Assembly (NCBI RefSeq): GCF_019242955.1
Contig: NZ_CP066129.1
Coordinates: forward strand, 2,170,001-2,234,000
Source: Morganella morganii
Lineage (GTDB): Bacteria; Pseudomonadota; Gammaproteobacteria; Enterobacterales; Enterobacteriaceae
DNA length: 64,000 bases
Direction: 5' to 3'
The translations under genes were made by a program, and so were the position numbers. The stretch's first letter is position 1; the number at the start of each line of letters is the position of its first letter. Below are positions 9,295 to 16,996 of this stretch, in pieces. The notes under the pieces were generated by a model. That model was not told the DNA's origin and did not search any database. It saw only the letters and a list, made by a program, of their open reading frames with translations.

Positions 9295-10194
9295 TCAGCG
9301 GAACACATTGTTTTTCAGCATGGCAATCAGCCGCTGACCGGCCGGAGAAAGTGTATTGTGCTTATGATACACCAGCCAGACTTCAGAAAATGCCTGATTT
9401 TCAGCTAAATGAATATAGCGGACACCATCGACTTTCATTCTGGTAAATGATTCCGTCACCAGCGACACACCTAACCCGGCGGAGACCAATCCCAGAATCG
9501 TCATTGCCTCACCGGCTTCCTGGGCTATTACCGGTGTGACACCCGCACCTTTCAGCAAATTGATGATTTCATCATACAGCGCCGTGCCCACATCCCGTTC
9601 AAAGAAAACCAATGGTACGCCACTCAGCATATCCAGGGAAATACCTGATTTTAGGTATTTCATCAGCGGATGATCATCATAGACGGCCAGCATAAACCGT
9701 TCTTTAAACAGCAGTTCATGAACCAGGTTATCCGGTAGTTGGGTATTGCGCATCACACCGAAATCGATCCTGCCGCTCAGCAGCGGATTAATCTGCTGCT
9801 TGGTATTCATCTGATGCATATGAATAGCCACATCAGGGTACATTTCCCGATACTGACGAAATGTGGCGGTGATATGACGCATAAAAGGTGTCGTGGAGGT
9901 AAAGCCGACAGAGACTTCCCCCAGTTCCCCGCGATCCATTCTGGCTGCTTTTTCAACGGCGGCCTCAACCTGAGTACGAATCTGATAAGCTTCGCGCAAA
10001 AACATTTCCCCGGCCGGTGTCAGACTGACATTCCGGTTGTTCCGTGCCAGCAGTTTAGCCGGTATCGCATTCTCAAGTGCCTGAATCTGCTGACTGAGCG
10101 GAGGCTGAGAGATATTAAGACGCTCTGCCGCCCGGCCGAAATGGAGCTCTTCAGCGACAGCGATAAAATAGCGCAGATGGCGGAATTCGATCAT
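9295..10194 (-). CDS. ynfL: LysR-type regulator (YnfL-like)
   Basis: A 299-residue LysR-family regulator. It starts MIEFRHLRYFIAVAEELHF with the DNA-binding helix-turn-helix through AAERLNISQPPLSQQIQALE, followed by a substrate-binding domain with the co-inducer fold. It is divergent from the MFS transporter ynfM with a 109-bp gap, the same pair and orientation as ynfL-ynfM in E. coli. It probably controls ynfM and itself from that gap. The inducer is unknown. Confidence 0.85.
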   Translation of the reverse strand: MIEFRHLRYFIAVAEELHFGRAAERLNISQPPLSQQIQALENAIPAKLLARNNRNVSLTPAGEMFLREAYQIRTQVEAAVEKAARMDRGELGEVSVGFTSTTPFMRHITATFRQYREMYPDVAIHMHQMNTKQQINPLLSGRIDFGVMRNTQLPDNLVHELLFKERFMLAVYDDHPLMKYLKSGISLDMLSGVPLVFFERDVGTALYDEIINLLKGAGVTPVIAQEAGEAMTILGLVSAGLGVSLVTESFTRMKVDGVRYIHLAENQAFSEVWLVYHKHNTLSPAGQRLIAMLKNNVFR

Positions 10195-10303
10195 TATTCC
10201 CTCATTGAGTCGTAAAACATATCAATCAAGAGTATTAATATATTAGACAAAACACCAGCATCTTTTTATGCTTTGTTTTATGACAAGATGCTGAGATAAG
10301 TGT

Positions 10304-11557
10304 ATGACAGATGAGAATAAACTGATAACTGATAGCCGGATGAGTTCCCCGGTGCAGGAGAATCAGACAAAACAGCACTATATCCAGCGTGACGACAAAC
10401 TGTATCTGCGTGTCACACTTTCCTTTTTTATGGTCGGTCTGGCAACATTTGCCCTGCTCTATTTTGTACAGCCGATCCTGCCGTTATTGTCAGAGGATTT
10501 TTCTGTATCACCGGCACAGGCCAGTTTATCGTTGTCACTTGCCACCGGATTTATGGCGGTCGGACTGTTGATCACCGGCCCGTTGTCGGATGCAGTCGGC
10601 CGTAAAAACGTCATGGTGATATCCCTGACCTGCGCCGCCATTTTTACACTGCTCAGCGCCTTCACCACCAGTTGGGCGGGTATTCTGATTGTCCGTTCAC
10701 TTGTCGGATTATCACTCAGCGGTGTTGCAGCTGTGGCTATGACCTATCTCAGTGAGGAAATTCATCCCAGCTATGTCGCCCTCTCCATGGGATTATATAT
10801 CAGCGGAAACTCTATCGGCGGCATGAGCGGACGCCTGATCACCGGAGTGATTGCGGATTATGCCAGCTGGCGGATTGCCGTTCTGGTACTCGGCACATTT
10901 TCCCTGATAGGTGCATTTTTATTCTGGCGGTTACTGCCGCCGTCACGTCATTTCCGGGCCAGTTCGCTAAAACCGAAGAGTCTGTGGAAATACCTGATTC
11001 TGCACTGCCGGGATGACGGGCTGCCATGGCTGTTTGCCATTGGTTTTATTATTATGGGCAGCTTTGTTACCCTGTTTAATTATATCGGTTACCGGCTGAT
11101 GGAACCGCCGTATTATTTCAGCCAGGCCGTTGTCGGCATGCTATCCATCGTCTATTTATCAGGAACTTACAGTGCCTCTAAAGCCGGTACACTGACGCGT
11201 AAATACGGTTACGGAAAAGTATTGATTGGCGCGGTTTCTCTGATGCTGGCCGGCATTCTCATCACTCTCGGCAGCTCACTGACGGCTGTGCTTGCCGGTA
11301 TGCTGGTGCTGACCACCGGATTTTTTGCCGCTCATTCTGTCACCAGCAGCTGGGTCGGACGCCGTGCACGACGTGCCAGGGCTCAGGCATCTTCCCTCTA
11401 TCTGTTTTCCTATTATGGCGGCTCCAGTATTGCCGGTACTTTGGGGGGCGTTTTCTGGTCTTACTGGCACTGGAATGGCATCGGCTGGTTTATCGCTGCT
11501 ATGCTGGCAACGGGTGTGCTGATTGCGCTGTATCTGAACAAACATGCACATTCATGA
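10304..11557 (+). CDS. ynfM: MFS transporter YnfM
   Basis: A 417-residue major facilitator with a polar N-terminal tail of about 35 residues and 12 predicted membrane helices. The motif between helices 2 and 3 reads GPLSDAVGRKNVM (family A-motif). The fold and neighbourhood match YnfM, an arabinose-polymer/drug-type exporter family member in E. coli. The long tail MTDENKLITDSRMSSPVQ may be partly due to an upstream start; another ATG is at residue 13. Substrate is unknown. The 402 bp after it have no ordinary gene. Confidence 0.85.
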   Translation: MTDENKLITDSRMSSPVQENQTKQHYIQRDDKLYLRVTLSFFMVGLATFALLYFVQPILPLLSEDFSVSPAQASLSLSLATGFMAVGLLITGPLSDAVGRKNVMVISLTCAAIFTLLSAFTTSWAGILIVRSLVGLSLSGVAAVAMTYLSEEIHPSYVALSMGLYISGNSIGGMSGRLITGVIADYASWRIAVLVLGTFSLIGAFLFWRLLPPSRHFRASSLKPKSLWKYLILHCRDDGLPWLFAIGFIIMGSFVTLFNYIGYRLMEPPYYFSQAVVGMLSIVYLSGTYSASKAGTLTRKYGYGKVLIGAVSLMLAGILITLGSSLTAVLAGMLVLTTGFFAAHSVTSSWVGRRARRARAQASSLYLFSYYGGSSIAGTLGGVFWSYWHWNGIGWFIAAMLATGVLIALYLNKHAHS

Positions 11558-11959
11558 TACATAAAAATATAGTCAGATAATTAATTTTTATGTCATATAA
11601 AATACCTCAACAGGTTAATTTTATATTCTGATTTTTCAGCATATACTATTTGTGTTTTAAGGTTAAATATACTTCACTTTGTAATTAAACTTGATCAGAA
11701 GTACTGCAACACCATTATTACGTTGTATCTCCAAAGAAATTGATAACTTGTCATAATTTATTTTTTAAATCTTCAGCCACTTTTATTTCATAAAAGTGGC
11801 TGCTTTATTTTTCATTATCTATATAAATAGTCCCGTAGTTTTTCATTTATATTAAATTAAAAATAACTCATCAGGTTAATTCAATTCTCTTACACATACG
11901 ACTACAGTTATACGTGTTCCACACATTCTCTTTTCCATCAACAGAAAAATGAGGTTCAT
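11558..11959. other. AT-rich gene-free stretch after ynfM, with a strong plus-strand terminator
   Basis: No ORF of note. At 11774-11802 CAGCCACTTTTA and TAAAAGTGGCTG form a perfect 12-bp stem followed by CTTTATTTTTC, a strong plus-strand terminator. It is 216 bp past the ynfM stop, which is far for that gene and leaves room for a small RNA of up to about 200 nt. Two related segments, 11601-11629 and 11861-11888, share the pattern AATA(A/C)CTCA-CAGGTTAATT and may be duplicated promoters. Confidence 0.5.
11774..11812 (+). terminator. Strong terminator, ynfM or an unannotated small RNA
   Basis: Perfect 12-bp stem with a five-base loop (TTTCA) and a downstream CTTTATTTTT tract on the plus strand. 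Confidence 0.75.
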
Positions 11960-12127
11960 ATGCTGACTCTGCTATTAAGTTCTGCCCTGATGATGTCCCC
12001 ACCGGCACCTTCTAATGCGTGGCGCGCACCCCCACCACCATCGAACGTTGTTATTTGTCACGACCAGGTTACCACACCACAGATAGAGTTCAGTTTCAAT
12101 AAACAATACCTGCGTTGCACGCCATAA
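11960..12127 (+). CDS. Micropeptide 1 of the array (55 aa)
   Basis: An ORF of 55 residues starting MLTLLLSSALMMSPPAP, after a GAGG ribosome site five bases upstream. A short hydrophobic N-terminus is followed by a Pro-rich stretch (about 14-27) and a polar tail with two cysteines (33 and 53). I do not recognise the family. It shares the opening MLTLxLSSxLM and the two-cysteine rule with ORFs at 12321 and 12718, which supports real translation. The N-terminus lacks the Lys/Arg of a classic signal peptide. Confidence 0.55.
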   Translation: MLTLLLSSALMMSPPAPSNAWRAPPPPSNVVICHDQVTTPQIEFSFNKQYLRCTP

Positions 12128-12183
12128 CCGATACAACACTATATACAGGTGTTATACCTTACAATCACAGAAAAGAGATTATT

Positions 12184-12291
12184 ATGCTCGCACTTTTATT
12201 AACTGGTACATTATTTCTTTCTTCTGCAGAATCATTTGAATCCTGCGATATCGTTGCTCCTGAGTATTGTTCCGTCATCTGGTGGAATTAA
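12184..12291 (+). CDS. Micropeptide 2 of the array (35 aa)
   Basis: A 35-residue ORF starting MLALLLTGTLFLSS, then SAESFESCDIVAPEYCSVIWWN. It again has a hydrophobic start and exactly two cysteines (21 and 29). The ribosome site is weak (AAGAGA). The last 18 codons recur, with changes, at 12629-12682 without a start, so this gene was partly duplicated. It lies 56 bp after micropeptide 1 and 29 bp before micropeptide 3, consistent with one transcript. Function unknown. Confidence 0.5.
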   Translation: MLALLLTGTLFLSSAESFESCDIVAPEYCSVIWWN

Positions 12292-12320
12292 TCTGCCATA
12301 TAATATAACGAGGAATTTTT

Positions 12321-12467
12321 ATGCTGACACTTATATTAAGTAGTTCATTAATGATTAATAGCTATTTTACTGATCATAAAAATGATGAACCAAAACCTGA
12401 TGTCTGGGAGCCGAAATCGGCTCAATATATTAATGATGTATGCACTAAACCCTATTGCGAACAATGA
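12321..12467 (+). CDS. Micropeptide 3 of the array (48 aa)
   Basis: A 48-residue ORF starting MLTLILSSSLMINSYF, with GAGGA six bases upstream. The middle is acidic and polar (DHKNDEPKPDVWEPK), and the end holds two cysteines (41 and 46) in CTKPYC. The paralogue at 12718 differs in the first 36 codons by two silent changes and one Ile-to-Val, and later by an in-frame six-base insertion. That pattern is what selection on a protein produces. No known family recognised. Confidence 0.65.
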   Translation: MLTLILSSSLMINSYFTDHKNDEPKPDVWEPKSAQYINDVCTKPYCEQ

Positions 12468-12575
12468 AATAACAGCGGGTAATATTACTACCAATCATGA
12501 ACAGGCATTGTTTATTCGTTTATTCTATATGGTACAAATAAGCAAGATTGTTCATATAAAAACTCACTGAGCTTT

Positions 12576-12607
12576 ACCATTAACCCACGTTTATGTGGGT
12601 TAACGGT
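12576..12607. terminator. Hairpin closing unit A of the micropeptide array
   Basis: ACCATTAACCCAC pairs with GTGGGTTAACGGT with one mismatch, loop GTTTAT. No T-run follows on the plus strand, so it may be a 3' stabiliser, an operator or a weak terminator. Confidence 0.55.
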
Positions 12608-12628
12608 GATAATAAAATCGGTAACAAA

Positions 12629-12682
12629 TTATTTGAATTCTGCGATATAGTTTCACCTGAGTGTTGTTCCGTCATCTGGTGA
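12629..12682 (+). pseudogene. Remnant of micropeptide 2 in unit B
   Basis: The reading frame LFEFCDIVSPECCSVIW repeats the end of micropeptide 2 but lacks its hydrophobic start. The only in-frame ATG upstream (12594) lies inside the preceding hairpin and has no ribosome site. The original TGG-TGG-AAT end is cut short by TGA. Confidence 0.6.
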
Positions 12683-12717
12683 AATTAACCTGCCATATAA
12701 TATAGCGAGGAATTTTT

Positions 12718-12873
12718 ATGCTGACACTTATTTTAAGTAGTTCATTAATGGTTAATAGCTATTTTACTGATCATAAAAATGATGAACCAAAACCTGATGT
12801 CTGGGAGCCGAAATCGGCTCAGTATGTTTATGATACATGTCCTAAAGATAAACCCTATTGCCACATGCTGTGA
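12718..12873 (+). CDS. Micropeptide 4 of the array (51 aa)
   Basis: Paralogue of micropeptide 3 on the duplicated unit: MLTLILSSSLMVNSYF start, the same polar middle, and a changed tail with cysteines at 41 and 48 in CPKDKPYC. GCGAGGA lies upstream of the ATG. Residues 1-36 differ at one position from the copy at 12321 whereas the tails differ strongly, which suggests the tail is the variable, perhaps target-facing, part. Function unknown. Confidence 0.65.
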   Translation: MLTLILSSSLMVNSYFTDHKNDEPKPDVWEPKSAQYVYDTCPKDKPYCHML

Positions 12874-12979
12874 TAACAGCAGACAATATTATTGTCCGTC
12901 ATGAACAAACATTATTTATTCGTTTATTTTATACAGTACAAATAAACAGGGTTGTTCATATAAATACTCACTAAGTTTT

Positions 12980-13011
12980 ACCATTAACCCACGTTTATGT
13001 GGGTTAACGGT
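12980..13011. terminator. Hairpin closing unit B of the micropeptide array
   Basis: Same arms and loop as the hairpin at 12576-12607. Confidence 0.55.
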
Positions 13012-13154
13012 GATAATAAAACCGGTGGTAAACAACCACGGCAGCCTGCCATCCCGGCAGTTCAGGATCAGACATTTTCACAGGTTCTTATGTTTTAGTG
13101 AGCTGGCTATATATATTCGATAAAAACCAAATAACATTACCATTACGCCCTTTT

Positions 13155-13183
13155 CTTCCCTTCTTCCCTTCTTCCCTTCTTCC
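13155..13183 (+). repeat. Octanucleotide microsatellite (CTTCCCTT) x 3.6
   Basis: Three perfect CTTCCCTT units and a partial fourth, about 90 bp upstream of the tus start and 50 bp upstream of the TATAAA box. Such repeats change copy number by slippage. Confidence 0.9.
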
Positions 13184-13244
13184 ATGCGAGACAAAATTCT
13201 CTTGTACAAAGCACAATGCTGAACTAATCTGGTATAAACACATT

Positions 13245-13261
13245 TGTATGTTGTAACTAAA
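13245..13261 (+). promoter_or_regulatory. Ter replication-arrest site / tus operator
   Basis: TGTATGTTGTAACTAAA matches the E. coli Ter core ATGTTGTAACTAAA exactly and sits 9 bp before tus, as TerB does in E. coli. Tus bound here would block forks from one side and repress its own promoter. Confidence 0.92.
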
Positions 13262-13270
13262 AGGTGATGT

Positions 13271-14194
13271 ATGAGATATGACGCAAGAATGTCGCTTACG
13301 GACTGCTTTAATCAACTGGAATCAGCTCTGAATACCTTGTGCAAAACTATCCGGCTGGATTCGGCGCGTACCGCTGAAGTTTATCAGTTGCCGGAGATCC
13401 TGAAAGGCGAAGAAAATAACACCGTCAACACCATTTCTGTCATTCCTGTCAGTGGTGAGGATGCCGTTTCTCTGGCACTGTCCCACTATCAGCGTTTATT
13501 TATTTTTGATAATGACCAGACAATCAGCAGTAAATCTGCCATTCGTTTGCCCGGTGTACTGCTGATCACACTCTCTCCTTCACACCGGAAAGCGGTACAG
13601 CAACAACTTGCTGAAGTGAACCGTCTGAAAAAACTATTGGCTGCTATCGTGACAGAAACATCCGGCGTAGATAAAACGCAGCGGTTTGAGTTCGTACACA
13701 ACCAGATAAAGGGATTAATTACACTGAATGCCTACCGGCAAATCCAGTCTGTCACCTCCCCCACTTCTGTCCGGTTTGGCTGGGCCAACAAGCATATTAT
13801 CCAGAAGGTCGATCGCAACACATTGTTATCTCAACTGGAGGAGCAATACCAGAAACCGCGCGCCATTCAGTCTCTGACACGCGAAGAACGGCAATCATAT
13901 CTGGCAAAAGAGATTTCCGCATTAAAACAGGTACCGGAAGATGCGGTACTGAAAATCAAGCGACCGGTAAAAGTACAACCCATCGCACGGGTCTGGTACA
14001 GCGAAGCACAAAAGCAGGTGCAATACGCCTGTGCATCTCCGCTGATTGTATTTTGTGATGAGAATGATGAAAAACCGATCACCGGCGTCTTGCCGGATTA
14101 TGATGCAGAAAATATTAAGATCCGTCACAGGCCGAAAGCACAAAAATTAATTTCTGTGATACCGAGACTGCATTTATATATGGAAGTGATGTAA
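13271..14194 (+). CDS. tus: Replication terminus-binding protein Tus
   Basis: Tus binds Ter sites as a monomer and stops the DnaB helicase in one direction, trapping forks in the terminus. The 307-residue protein contains LRFGWANKHII-like VRFGWANKHII and the strongly conserved KIKRPVKVQPIARVWY, both in the DNA-binding core, and ends IPRLHLYMEV. The ATG at 13271 follows AAGGTG. The N-terminal third is more divergent than the core. It is convergent with fumC, as in E. coli, and lies directly behind a Ter site. Confidence 0.95.
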   Translation: MRYDARMSLTDCFNQLESALNTLCKTIRLDSARTAEVYQLPEILKGEENNTVNTISVIPVSGEDAVSLALSHYQRLFIFDNDQTISSKSAIRLPGVLLITLSPSHRKAVQQQLAEVNRLKKLLAAIVTETSGVDKTQRFEFVHNQIKGLITLNAYRQIQSVTSPTSVRFGWANKHIIQKVDRNTLLSQLEEQYQKPRAIQSLTREERQSYLAKEISALKQVPEDAVLKIKRPVKVQPIARVWYSEAQKQVQYACASPLIVFCDENDEKPITGVLPDYDAENIKIRHRPKAQKLISVIPRLHLYMEVM

Positions 14195-14195
14195 A

Positions 14196-14222
14196 AACGG
14201 AGCCGTCATGGCTCCGTTCCTG
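14196..14222 (-). terminator. fumC terminator (shared with tus)
   Basis: AACGGAGCC and GGCTCCGTT form a 9-bp stem around GTCAT. On the minus strand it is followed by TTTTT, so it mainly serves fumC. Confidence 0.75.
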
Positions 14223-14252
14223 CTATATGTAAGGACTACCCGTAACGACGGA

Positions 14253-15647
14253 TTACTTCATGCTGCCGACCATCTCTTCCGGACGAACCCACGCATCAAA
14301 TTCCGCTTCAGTCAGATAACCCAGCTTCATTGCGGATGCTTTCAGCGTCAGGCCTTCTTTATGGGCTTTTTTCGCGATTTCGGCTGCTTTGTCATAGCCG
14401 ATATGGGTATTCAGCGCCGTTACCAGCATCAGTGATTCATTCAGCAACTGACTGATCCGCTCACGGTTCGGTTCAATACCCACCGCACAGTGCTCATTAA
14501 AGCTGCGCATGCCGTCAGCCAGCAGACGGACAGATTGCAGGAAGTTGTGGATTACCATCGGACGGAACACATTCAGTTCAAAATTACCGGATGCCCCGCC
14601 GATATTGACCGCCACATCATTCCCCATCACCTGCGCGCACAGCATCGTCATCGCTTCACACTGTGTCGGATTCACTTTACCCGGCATGATAGAGCTGCCC
14701 GGTTCGTTTTCCGGAATGGCAATTTCACCGATGCCGCAGCGCGGACCGGATGCCAGCCAGCGGACATCATTGGCGATCTTCATCAGTGAGGCTGCCAGCC
14801 CTTTCAGTGCACCATGGGCATGAACCAGCGCATCACAGGTGGCCAGTGCCTCAAATTTATTCGGTGCAGTCACAAACGGCTGACCGGACAGTTCAGCGAT
14901 TTTCTTCGCCACACGTACGGCATACTCCGGATGAGTATTCAGGCCGGTACCGACCGCTGTACCACCGAGAGCCAGCTCGCTCAGATGCGGCAGGCTGTTT
15001 TCCAGATGTTTCAGGTTATATTGCAGCATTGCCGCCCAGCCGGAAATTTCCTGACCCAATGTCAGCGGTGTGGCGTCCTGTAAGTGAGTACGGCCGATTT
15101 TAACGATATCGCGGTAGGCTTCCGCTTTTTCTGCCAGGACACGGTGCAGAGATTTCAATTCAGGGATCAGCTGAGTGCTGACCGCAATCACTGCAGCGAC
15201 ATGCATCGCTGTCGGGAATACGTCGTTAGAACTCTGGCTTTTATTCACATCATCATTCGGGTGGACGATACGCTCACCGCCGCGCTGCCCGCCGAGGATT
15301 TCACTGGCACGGTTTGCCAGCACCTCATTCATATTCATGTTACTTTGTGTGCCGGAACCGGTCTGCCAGATAGCCAGCGGAAACTCTTCAGGGTGCTTAC
15401 CGGCAAGAACTTCATCCGCGGCGGCAATGATTGCATCCGCCCGCTCTTTCGCCAGCAGTCCCAGATCACAGTTGACAGCTGCCGCTGCTTTTTTTGTAAT
15501 AGCCAGCGCAGCAATCAGATCCGCAGGCATTTTTTCAACTGAAATACGGAAATGCTCTAAAGAACGTTGAGTCTGAGCGCCCCACAATTTGTCCGCAGGA
15601 ACATCGATAGGGCCCATTGAGTCTTTTTCAATACGCGTGGCTGCCAT
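14253..15647 (-). CDS. fumC: Fumarate hydratase class II
   Basis: FumC converts fumarate to L-malate in the TCA cycle. It is the iron-free, oxidation-resistant enzyme. The 464 residues include the superfamily signature [16 protein letters not shown] with the catalytic Ser, and the [14 protein letters not shown] and [11 protein letters not shown] blocks. The start [12 protein letters not shown] follows AAGGAG; a longer frame to 15668 has no support. A fumA gene, next to fumC in E. coli, is missing: manA follows directly on the other strand. Confidence 0.97.
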
Positions 15648-15820
15648 TAGTCTCTCCTTAGCACACAAAATAAAATGGATTTCAAATCCCGAAAGTTACA
15701 GATAGACTCTGAAAACGGGCATATCTTGCCACACTTTCATTTCCGATTATGCGATCCGGGCGGAGTTATTGCTTTATTGTTACTACCTTATTGTTAACTG
15801 TTTAAAAAGAGAGCGTTGCT

Positions 15821-16996
15821 ATGTTAAAAATGCAGAATCAGGTGCAATTTTATGACTGGGGAAGCCATACCGCGATGACAGAAATGTACGGCTACCCGAA
15901 CCCTGACAAGCAGCCGATGGCAGAATTGTGGATGGGCGCACATCCGAAAGCCAGTTCGGTAGTGACTGACACCCGCGGCAACACCTGCTCTTTATATGAT
16001 TTTATTGCCGGTAATCCGCAGTCAGCACTGGGGACCGAAATTAACCGCCGTTTTCACCGGCTGCCGTTTCTGTTTAAAGTACTGAGTGCCGCTCAGCCGC
16101 TGTCGGTACAGGTTCATCCGGACAAAGCCGCTGCAGAAGCCGGGTTTGCCCGTGAAAACGAGGCCGGAATCGCACTCGATTCGCCAGTCCGCAATTATAA
16201 GGATGATAACCATAAGCCTGAGCTGGTTTATGCCCTCACCCCGTTCCGTGCGATGAATGCTTTTCGTCCGCTGGCGGAAATGGCTGAGCTGCTCAGTGAA
16301 GTCGCCCCGGCACATCCGGCCATCGAACGCTTTATTGCCTCGCCGTCAGAAGAACAACTGTCTGCTTTATTTACCCGCCTGCTCTCTATGAGCGGAGAAA
16401 CCAAAGAACGGGCAATCGGCGTACTGAAATCCGCACTGAACAGCCGCCGCGGTGAACCGTGGGATACCATCCGTAAGATGACAGAATTTTATTCTGACGA
16501 TAATGGTCTTTTCACCCCCTTGCTGCTCAATGTTGTTGAGCTGAAGCCCGGTGAAGCGATGTTCCTGTATGCCCGCACACCGCATGCTTATCTGGAAGGA
16601 ACCGCACTGGAGGTGATGGCTAACTCAGATAATGTGTTACGCGCCGGACTGACACAAAAGCATATTGATGTCGGTGAATTGCTGAATAATCTTGATTTTG
16701 TACCGAAACACGCAAAAAGTTTATTTATGCAGCCGGAACATATTAACAACACAGAAATTTTCCCGATCCCTGTTGATGACTTTTCTTTTTCAATCATGAA
16801 AATGCGTAATCAGGAAATGAATATTGAGAACAACAGTGCTAATATTCTTTTTTGTGTGGAAGGTCAAGCGGTTATCACTACCGAAATACAAAAATTAAGA
16901 GTTATCTCAGGTGAATCTGTTTTTCTTTCTGCTATAGAAAGAAAGTTTAAAATAGATGGTGAAGGAATCATTGCCCGCGTTTATAATGCCGTGTAA
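15821..16996 (+). CDS. manA: Mannose-6-phosphate isomerase, class I
   Basis: ManA interconverts mannose-6-phosphate and fructose-6-phosphate and links mannose use to GDP-mannose synthesis. The 391-residue protein has the zinc motifs PMAELWMGAHPKASS and VQVHPDK, plus YARTPHAYLEG near the active site. The start MLKMQNQVQFYDWG matches the family length. It is divergent from fumC with a 173-bp gap and is followed by a hairpin, so it is probably monocistronic. Confidence 0.95.
   Translation: MLKMQNQVQFYDWGSHTAMTEMYGYPNPDKQPMAELWMGAHPKASSVVTDTRGNTCSLYDFIAGNPQSALGTEINRRFHRLPFLFKVLSAAQPLSVQVHPDKAAAEAGFARENEAGIALDSPVRNYKDDNHKPELVYALTPFRAMNAFRPLAEMAELLSEVAPAHPAIERFIASPSEEQLSALFTRLLSMSGETKERAIGVLKSALNSRRGEPWDTIRKMTEFYSDDNGLFTPLLLNVVELKPGEAMFLYARTPHAYLEGTALEVMANSDNVLRAGLTQKHIDVGELLNNLDFVPKHAKSLFMQPEHINNTEIFPIPVDDFSFSIMKMRNQEMNIENNSANILFCVEGQAVITTEIQKLRVISGESVFLSAIERKFKIDGEGIIARVYNAV

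What the first reader, a model, noticed from the sequence alone, without database searches (positions are those of the whole stretch)
11960..12873. Array of four two-cysteine micropeptide genes, possibly a new family
Four ORFs of 55, 35, 48 and 51 codons lie in tandem on one strand. All start ML(T/A)L with a short hydrophobic segment. Three share MLTLxLSSxLM. Each has exactly two cysteines in an otherwise polar tail. Start codons are preceded by ribosome sites, good for 1, 3 and 4. Between copies 3 and 4 the first 36 codons show two silent and one conservative change, and a later length change is a whole number of codons. That pattern implies selection for the peptide. They could be exported disulfide peptides, membrane micropeptides or toxins. 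I know no matching family.
Basis: partly seen in the sequence, partly recalled or inferred. Interest (0 to 1): 0.78.

Follow-up and report, generated by a model that had tools for sequence, protein, structure and literature searches.

The report
Morganella array of cysteine-loop micropeptide genes
A row of tiny genes beside the replication-terminus gene tus in Morganella appears to make a previously undescribed family of very small, probably exported peptides with paired cysteines, kept by natural selection within the genus and not found elsewhere in the genomes searched.

Summary
The four ORFs are real. All 6 Morganella genomes held carry relatives at the same place, beside tus: 19 open peptide ORFs with ribosome-site motifs. 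Between species, A-type (P3/P4) and B-type (P2) peptides show dN/dS 0.09-0.41 where dS is not saturated. Between two close loci, 3 of 531 coding bases differ, all third-position, against 18 of 811 noncoding. Cysteine spacing is nearly fixed: C-x6-C in 10 of 11 tail-type peptides (residues 41/48 in 7), C-x7-C in the B and C slots; one peptide has both loops. A 22-bp element precedes the units and is almost locus-specific. No convincing relative was found outside Morganella. Best reading: a genus-restricted family of micropeptides whose tails are exported and form disulfide loops in the envelope or outside the cell. Translation is inferred from selection; export, disulfides and function are untested.

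The parts
10304..11557 (+). MFS transporter gene upstream (YnfM-like; name recalled)
   Evidence: Pfam MFS_1 E 3.1e-41; annotated MFS transporter at the same place in NZ_CP070536.1
11599..11620 (+). 22-bp element, copy 1
   Evidence: 1 mismatch to AAAATACCTMATNNGGTTAATT
11774..11802 (+). Terminator-like hairpin with T-rich tail
   Evidence: fold -17 kcal/mol, z -6.56
11860..11881 (+). 22-bp element, copy 2, 78 nt before P1
   Evidence: 1 mismatch
11960..12127 (+). P1, 55 aa, N slot; doubtful as a constrained gene
   Evidence: dN/dS 1.09 against G199; cysteines C33/C53 off the family pattern
12184..12291 (+). P2, 35 aa, B slot, C21-x7-C29
   Evidence: intact in 5 of 6 genomes; dN/dS 0.09-0.41 in 8 unsaturated of 10 pairs of the slot
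12321..12467 (+). P3, 48 aa, A slot, duplicated copy with C-x4-C
12576..12607 (+). Hairpin after P3 (no T run)
   Evidence: fold -19.2 kcal/mol, z -3.63; not flagged as terminator-like
12627..12682 (+). Headless remnant of the B gene in the second duplication unit
12718..12873 (+). P4, 51 aa, A slot, C41-x6-C48
   Evidence: dN/dS 0.15 against G199
12980..13011 (+). Hairpin after P4, same sequence as 12576-12607
13247..13260 (+). Ter-like site before tus (Ter identity recalled)
   Evidence: sequence found in 7 of 7 loci compared, slightly changed in G093
13271..14194 (+). tus, replication terminus site-binding protein
   Evidence: Pfam Ter E 2.8e-125; TIGR02648

Best explanation
The locus is a genus-specific array of micropeptide genes that grew by tandem duplication, divergence and loss. 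Each gene makes a 35-59 aa peptide: a hydrophobic start of about 14 residues without basic residues (a short signal or anchor), then a mostly acidic tail with a cysteine loop, either C-x7-C near residues 18-29 (CD[IL]xxPExC) or C-x6-C near 41-48. I infer that the start takes the tail across the inner membrane, that the cysteines form a disulfide there, and that the loop, free or membrane-held, binds a partner in the envelope or outside the cell; varied tails on a constant start suggest different partners for different slots. Shown: ORFs, ribosome-site motifs, synteny, purifying selection for A, B and (less data) N, cysteine spacing, absence outside the genus in the searches made. Inferred: translation, export, disulfide, function. 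My split: translated functional peptides in the A and B slots 0.93; exported with a disulfide 0.65; any one named partner below 0.3.
For: 6 of 6 Morganella genomes have members, and all 10 matches listed lie by tus. 19 of 19 open members have a ribosome-site motif (by eye). dN/dS: A between species 0.15-0.36 in 8 of 9 pairs, B 0.09-0.41 in 8 of 10, N 0.21 in 1 of 3, the other pairs saturated. In 9 of 9 between-species A/B/N pairs tested, changes in the peptide frame are more conservative than permuted ones, p<=0.016. G198 against MM48659: 3 of 531 coding bases differ, all third positions with peptides unchanged, against 18 of 811 noncoding. C-x6-C in 10 of 11 tail-type peptides, C-x7-C in 5 of 5 B and 2 of 2 C-slot peptides; no K/R in residues 1-14 in 19 of 19; net tail charge negative in 18 of 19. 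In 5 of 5 intact B peptides residues 15 and 17 (V/A/S, S/A) would fit a -3/-1 signal-peptidase site before F/Y18 (rule recalled).
Against: No expression, localisation or redox data. A leader with no K or R is unusual for a Sec signal peptide (recalled); no predictor was on hand. I took the ML start on the strength of its ribosome site; the N ORFs of G200 and G201 also have upstream in-frame ATGs that would add basic residues. A and N leaders do not all fit a -3/-1 site. AlphaFold models are poor (mean pLDDT 63.1 and 55.3). Broken members: B in G199, A and C slot in G200. P1 shows no clear constraint. Gapped codon pairs were aligned as proteins, which favours that frame; B G000/G198, B G200/G201 and A G000_P4/G198 have no gaps. 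One antisense frame also reaches p<0.05 in 5 of 11 pairs, always scoring below the peptide frame.
Confidence: 0.6

Rival explanations
1. Membrane-anchored small regulators, working like MgrB: the hydrophobic start stays in the inner membrane uncleaved and the disulfide loop modulates a sensor kinase or enzyme of the host cell itself.
For: Size, N-terminal hydrophobic segment and two cysteines in the C-terminal part resemble MgrB, whose periplasmic C28 and C39 are essential (PMC10576120, passages).
Against: The hydrophobic part is only about 14-18 residues, short for a membrane span; no sequence match; the genus has a separate MgrB in 6 of 6 genomes; no cognate sensor gene in the array.
Confidence: 0.2
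2. Peptides that stay in the cytoplasm or at the inner face of the membrane, with reduced cysteines that bind metal or sense redox state.
For: Leaders lack the usual basic residues (19 of 19); paired cysteines can bind metal (recalled).
Against: Hydrophobic start conserved in 19 of 19 peptides and acidic tails suit export; two cysteines alone make a poor metal site (recalled).
Confidence: 0.1
3. Type I toxin-like membrane peptides held in check by antisense RNAs.
For: Short hydrophobic start, tandem copies, AT-rich locus.
Against: Tails longer than the hydrophobic part, acidic and cysteine-bearing; no Rfam family at gathering score in the window; promoter-like sites on both strands no more than chance (9 found, 10.1 expected).
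Confidence: 0.06
4. Not peptide genes: a noncoding or RNA-level locus in which the ORFs are accidental.
For: Several broken members, P1 without clear constraint, no expression data, conserved hairpins and a conserved 22-bp element.
Against: dN/dS, permutation test, third-position differences between close loci, and no shuffle with four such ORFs.
Confidence: 0.04

Closest known systems
MgrB (PF13998), small inhibitor of PhoQ
   Same: Small, hydrophobic N-terminal part, two cysteines in the C-terminal part: works-like resemblance only
   Different: No sequence match; Morganella has a true MgrB elsewhere in 6 of 6 genomes; C28/C39 spacing x10 against x6 or x7; no basic N-terminus; diversified array
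Class II microcins and other leader-plus-core bacteriocin precursors (recalled)
   Same: Constant leader, divergent cores with cysteines
   Different: No double-glycine leader by eye; no immunity or dedicated export gene between the MFS gene and tus; cores under purifying selection
Tandem type I toxins such as Ldr and Ibs (recalled)
   Same: Short hydrophobic peptide genes in tandem
   Different: Long acidic cysteine-bearing tails; no Rfam family found
WP_155251728.1, hypothetical protein of M. morganii MM48659
   Same: An already annotated member: its A-slot peptide
   Different: Nothing beyond the name; the other three peptides of that locus have no gene in the PLSDB table, which is itself incomplete

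Membership tests
MgrB (PF13998) | Match to the Pfam MgrB model | tested here: not met
   0 Pfam families at E<=1 for 4 of 4 peptides; model hits over the cut-off lie away from the array in 6 of 6 genomes
MgrB (PF13998) | Periplasmic disulfide between the two conserved cysteines | not testable with these tools
   Cysteines present, location and oxidation unknown; window spacings x19, x7, x4, x6 against x10
Sec signal peptide | Basic n-region, hydrophobic h-region, small residues at -3/-1 | tested here: inconclusive
   Hydrophobic part present; no K/R in residues 1-14 in 19 of 19; -3/-1 fits 5 of 5 intact B peptides by eye, not all A and N
Type I toxin | Known antisense RNA partner | tested here: inconclusive
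   No Rfam match at gathering score in the window; unknown antisense RNAs not excluded
Phage or defence protein | Match to PHROGs, PADLOC, viral contigs or phage records | tested here: not met
   0 families for 4 of 4 peptides; A1 and A2 give no relative in viral contigs; P4 no match in phage records (the other three were not searched there)
Morganella cysteine-loop micropeptides (this report) | ML-type basic-free start, C-x6-C or C-x7-C loop, ribosome-site motif, tus locus | tested here: met
   P2 and P4 meet all; P3 has x4 and P1 x19 spacing

The most novel reading that the evidence does not exclude
A genus-specific repertoire of exported peptides built from two interchangeable disulfide loops on one constant leader. 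One G093 peptide carries both loops (C18/C26 and C41/C48); other slots keep only one, as if a two-loop ancestor had been duplicated and its copies had lost opposite loops, the loops serving different partners in the envelope or in other cells.
Probability: 0.25. Interest if true: 0.8.

Novelty: new variant of a known kind. Interest (0 to 1): 0.6.

Why it matters
Proteins under 60 aa are badly annotated: of the four peptides in the one annotated relative seen, one has a listed gene (that table is incomplete). A multi-copy family confined to one genus, with near-fixed cysteine spacing, clear selection and an almost private upstream element, is a tractable case for how new, probably exported, micropeptides arise and diversify in enterobacteria. 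If the tails are exported, it would also give a defined set of peptides to test for envelope or intercellular roles in a genus of opportunistic pathogens.

Tried and rejected
Other frames: the overlapping +1 ORFs (such as 12382-12570) were rejected, +1 giving p>0.13 in 10 of 11 pairs, P1 being the exception (0.018). The antisense frame '-1' reaches p<0.05 in 5 of 11 pairs, but its z is below that of the peptide frame in 11 of 11; taken as an echo of shared variable positions.

Relatives outside Morganella: with A1 and A2, 38 and 22 non-Morganella genomes of 392 had a match at E<=0.1, where about 39 are expected by chance. I opened four of these loci: L039 has a leader-like MLTLILS... stretch that soon stops and no loop; L069 has a CDIVKPPEYC-like stretch without leader; L070 and L041 look unrelated. 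None has leader and loop together. L036 and L037 lie within a long unrelated frame. A2 over 394 genomes of the order at E<=0.001 matched only the window genome; no other Morganella matched in that sample. The scan (84,980 genomes, exact patterns from P3 alone) found H1r and those two.

Regulon of the element: 23 sites with up to 3 mismatches in 6 genomes, 10 at the locus (0-2 mismatches) and 13 elsewhere (one with 2, twelve with 3); the backward control pattern gave 2. I opened 5 of the 13: ends of a heptose-phosphatase-like gene and a lon/clpX intergenic stretch (names recalled). No regulator named. A likeness to the MqsA palindrome (recalled) was not tested.

Structure models: too poor to use. 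The tree has 3 well-supported inner forks of 16 and long branches, so slot orthology rests mainly on gene order. (A4) and two of five folds (L030, L033) used wrong coordinates and are ignored.

Full report
WHAT IS THERE. The three 500-bp blocks over the array have 30-38% GC; the mixed block 13001-13500 has 43% and the nine others from 9501 to 16000 have 45-57%. P3 and P4 belong to a tandem duplication whose second unit also holds a headless remnant of P2. Within it the copies differ at 3 of 108 bases in codons 1-36 of the A gene, 11 of 39 in the rest of it (plus gaps), 7 of 62 in the B part and 27 of 163 in the 3' spacer. None of 2000 dinucleotide shuffles of the gap gave four ribosome-site ORFs of 35 codons or more (maximum 2).

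RELATIVES. All 6 Morganella genomes held have members, and all 10 matches listed lie within about 2.5 kb of tus. Regions were fetched and read. Open members: 4 in the window genome, 2 in G199, 4 in G198, 4 in G093, 2 in G200, 3 in G201, 19 in all, counted from the ML-type start. The N ORFs of G200 and G201 have further in-frame ATGs upstream; I chose the ML start because the ribosome-site motif stands before it. NZ_CP070536.1 (M. morganii MM48659), called a plasmid but holding chromosomal genes such as bioD, tus, fumC and manA, has 4 peptides identical to those of G198.

ORDER. Common plan: 22-bp element, C slot, terminator-like hairpin, 22-bp element, N slot, B slot, A slot, hairpin, Ter-like site, tus. 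In the window the C slot holds no intact peptide, P1 is in the N slot, P2 is B, P3 and P4 are A. G093 departs from the plan: a four-cysteine C peptide, a divergent X peptide, an N-like peptide, then B, with one element. Slot names are mine. B is open in 5 of 6 genomes, A in 4 of 6; B is broken in G199, A and the C slot in G200. A terminal hairpin of related sequence is present in the window (twice), G198, G199, G200, G201 and MM48659, and was not found by that pattern in G093; in the window it has no T run and was not flagged as a terminator.

SELECTION. Nei-Gojobori dN/dS between species: A 0.15-0.36 (8 of 9 pairs), B 0.09-0.41 (8 of 10), N 0.21 (1 of 3); the remaining pairs and the C-slot pair are saturated. 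P3/P4 gives 0.66. P1 against its G199 orthologue gives 1.09, with changes even over the codon positions (15, 14, 13). In a permutation test the peptide frame is more conservative than chance at p<=0.016 in 11 of 11 pairs, 9 of them between-species A, B or N pairs; for P1 the +1 frame does nearly as well (0.018 against 0.011), so P1's score is not specific to its frame. G198 against MM48659: 3 of 531 coding bases differ, all third positions, against 18 of 811 noncoding plus 12 gap columns.

ANATOMY. Residues 1-14 hold no K or R in 19 of 19 peptides, with mean hydropathy 1.14-2.22; the tail's net charge is negative in 18 of 19, P1 being +1. C-x6-C occurs in 10 of 11 tail-type peptides, at residues 41/48 in 7 and one or two residues later in 3; P3 is the exception with x4. 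The G093 X peptide keeps C41/C48 although its tail is otherwise unlike the rest. B has C21/C29 in 5 of 5 and the C slot C18/C26 in 2 of 2, sharing CD[IL]xxPExC; the G093 C peptide has both loops and is counted in both groups. The two P1-type peptides fit neither pattern. The A peptides of G198 and G201 have a third cysteine at residue 15. Ribosome-site motifs stand before 19 of 19 starts (by eye).

ELEMENT. AAAATACCTMATNNGGTTAATT occurs with 0-2 mismatches at 10 places of this locus over 6 genomes and at 1 place elsewhere; with 3 mismatches at 12 more, none at the locus; the backward control gave 2 in all. MM48659 has two copies and G201 a further degraded one. From the element's end to the first open ORF of its unit there are 72-91 nt in 8 of 9 cases and 150 nt in G201 (coordinates). 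It may be an operator or promoter part; no regulator is assigned.

RANGE. 198 and 392 genomes of the family gave no convincing relative outside the genus, nor did 394 of the order with the B profile, viral contigs, phage records with P4 or plasmid records with P4 and P2, apart from MM48659. Upstream of tus in 16 of the 29 other genomes with a tus match I saw no such array, one stretch being only 651 bases; in 5 of the 16 a similar MFS gene ends about 130-245 bp before tus. Peptides this small and fast-changing could escape these searches.

INTERPRETATION. Selection on the amino-acid sequence makes translation very likely for the A and B slots. The hydrophobic start, acidic tail and spaced cysteines point to export and a disulfide, but the leader lacks the usual basic residues, so I hold export with a disulfide at 0.65. 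A partner in the envelope, as MgrB has PhoQ (PMC10576120, passages), or outside the cell is the likeliest role; nothing here tells which. The array is not MgrB, which Morganella has elsewhere.

PRINT. Seven searches of the open library listed no paper that I could recognise as describing this array; I saw listings and starts of abstracts only, apart from the passages of PMC10576120.

Noticed in passing
L094 (NZ_CP070536.1, 39528-50644): A 50.6-kb circular record called plasmid p48659_1 carries chromosomal terminus-region genes (bioD, tus, fumC, manA): an excised circle or an assembly piece rather than an ordinary plasmid.
   Followed up: partly
L033 and L034 (G200, G201), between the MFS gene and tus: A dispersed repeat (CCAACGTCATTCAAG ... 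AACGAACCTG ... GTTTGAATGAATAA) sits beside the peptide genes, in longer copies and a short remnant.
   Followed up: no
G201:C14:34911-35597 (L029): A second, distant Tus-like protein, 29% identical over residues 6-244 of tus.
   Followed up: no
window 13247-13260: Ter-like site directly before tus, present in 7 of 7 loci compared.
   Followed up: partly
window 12230-13026: After the duplication each unit kept a different gene: unit 1 an intact B gene and a derived A gene (x4 spacing), unit 2 an A gene with the common C-x6-C and a headless B remnant.
   Followed up: yes
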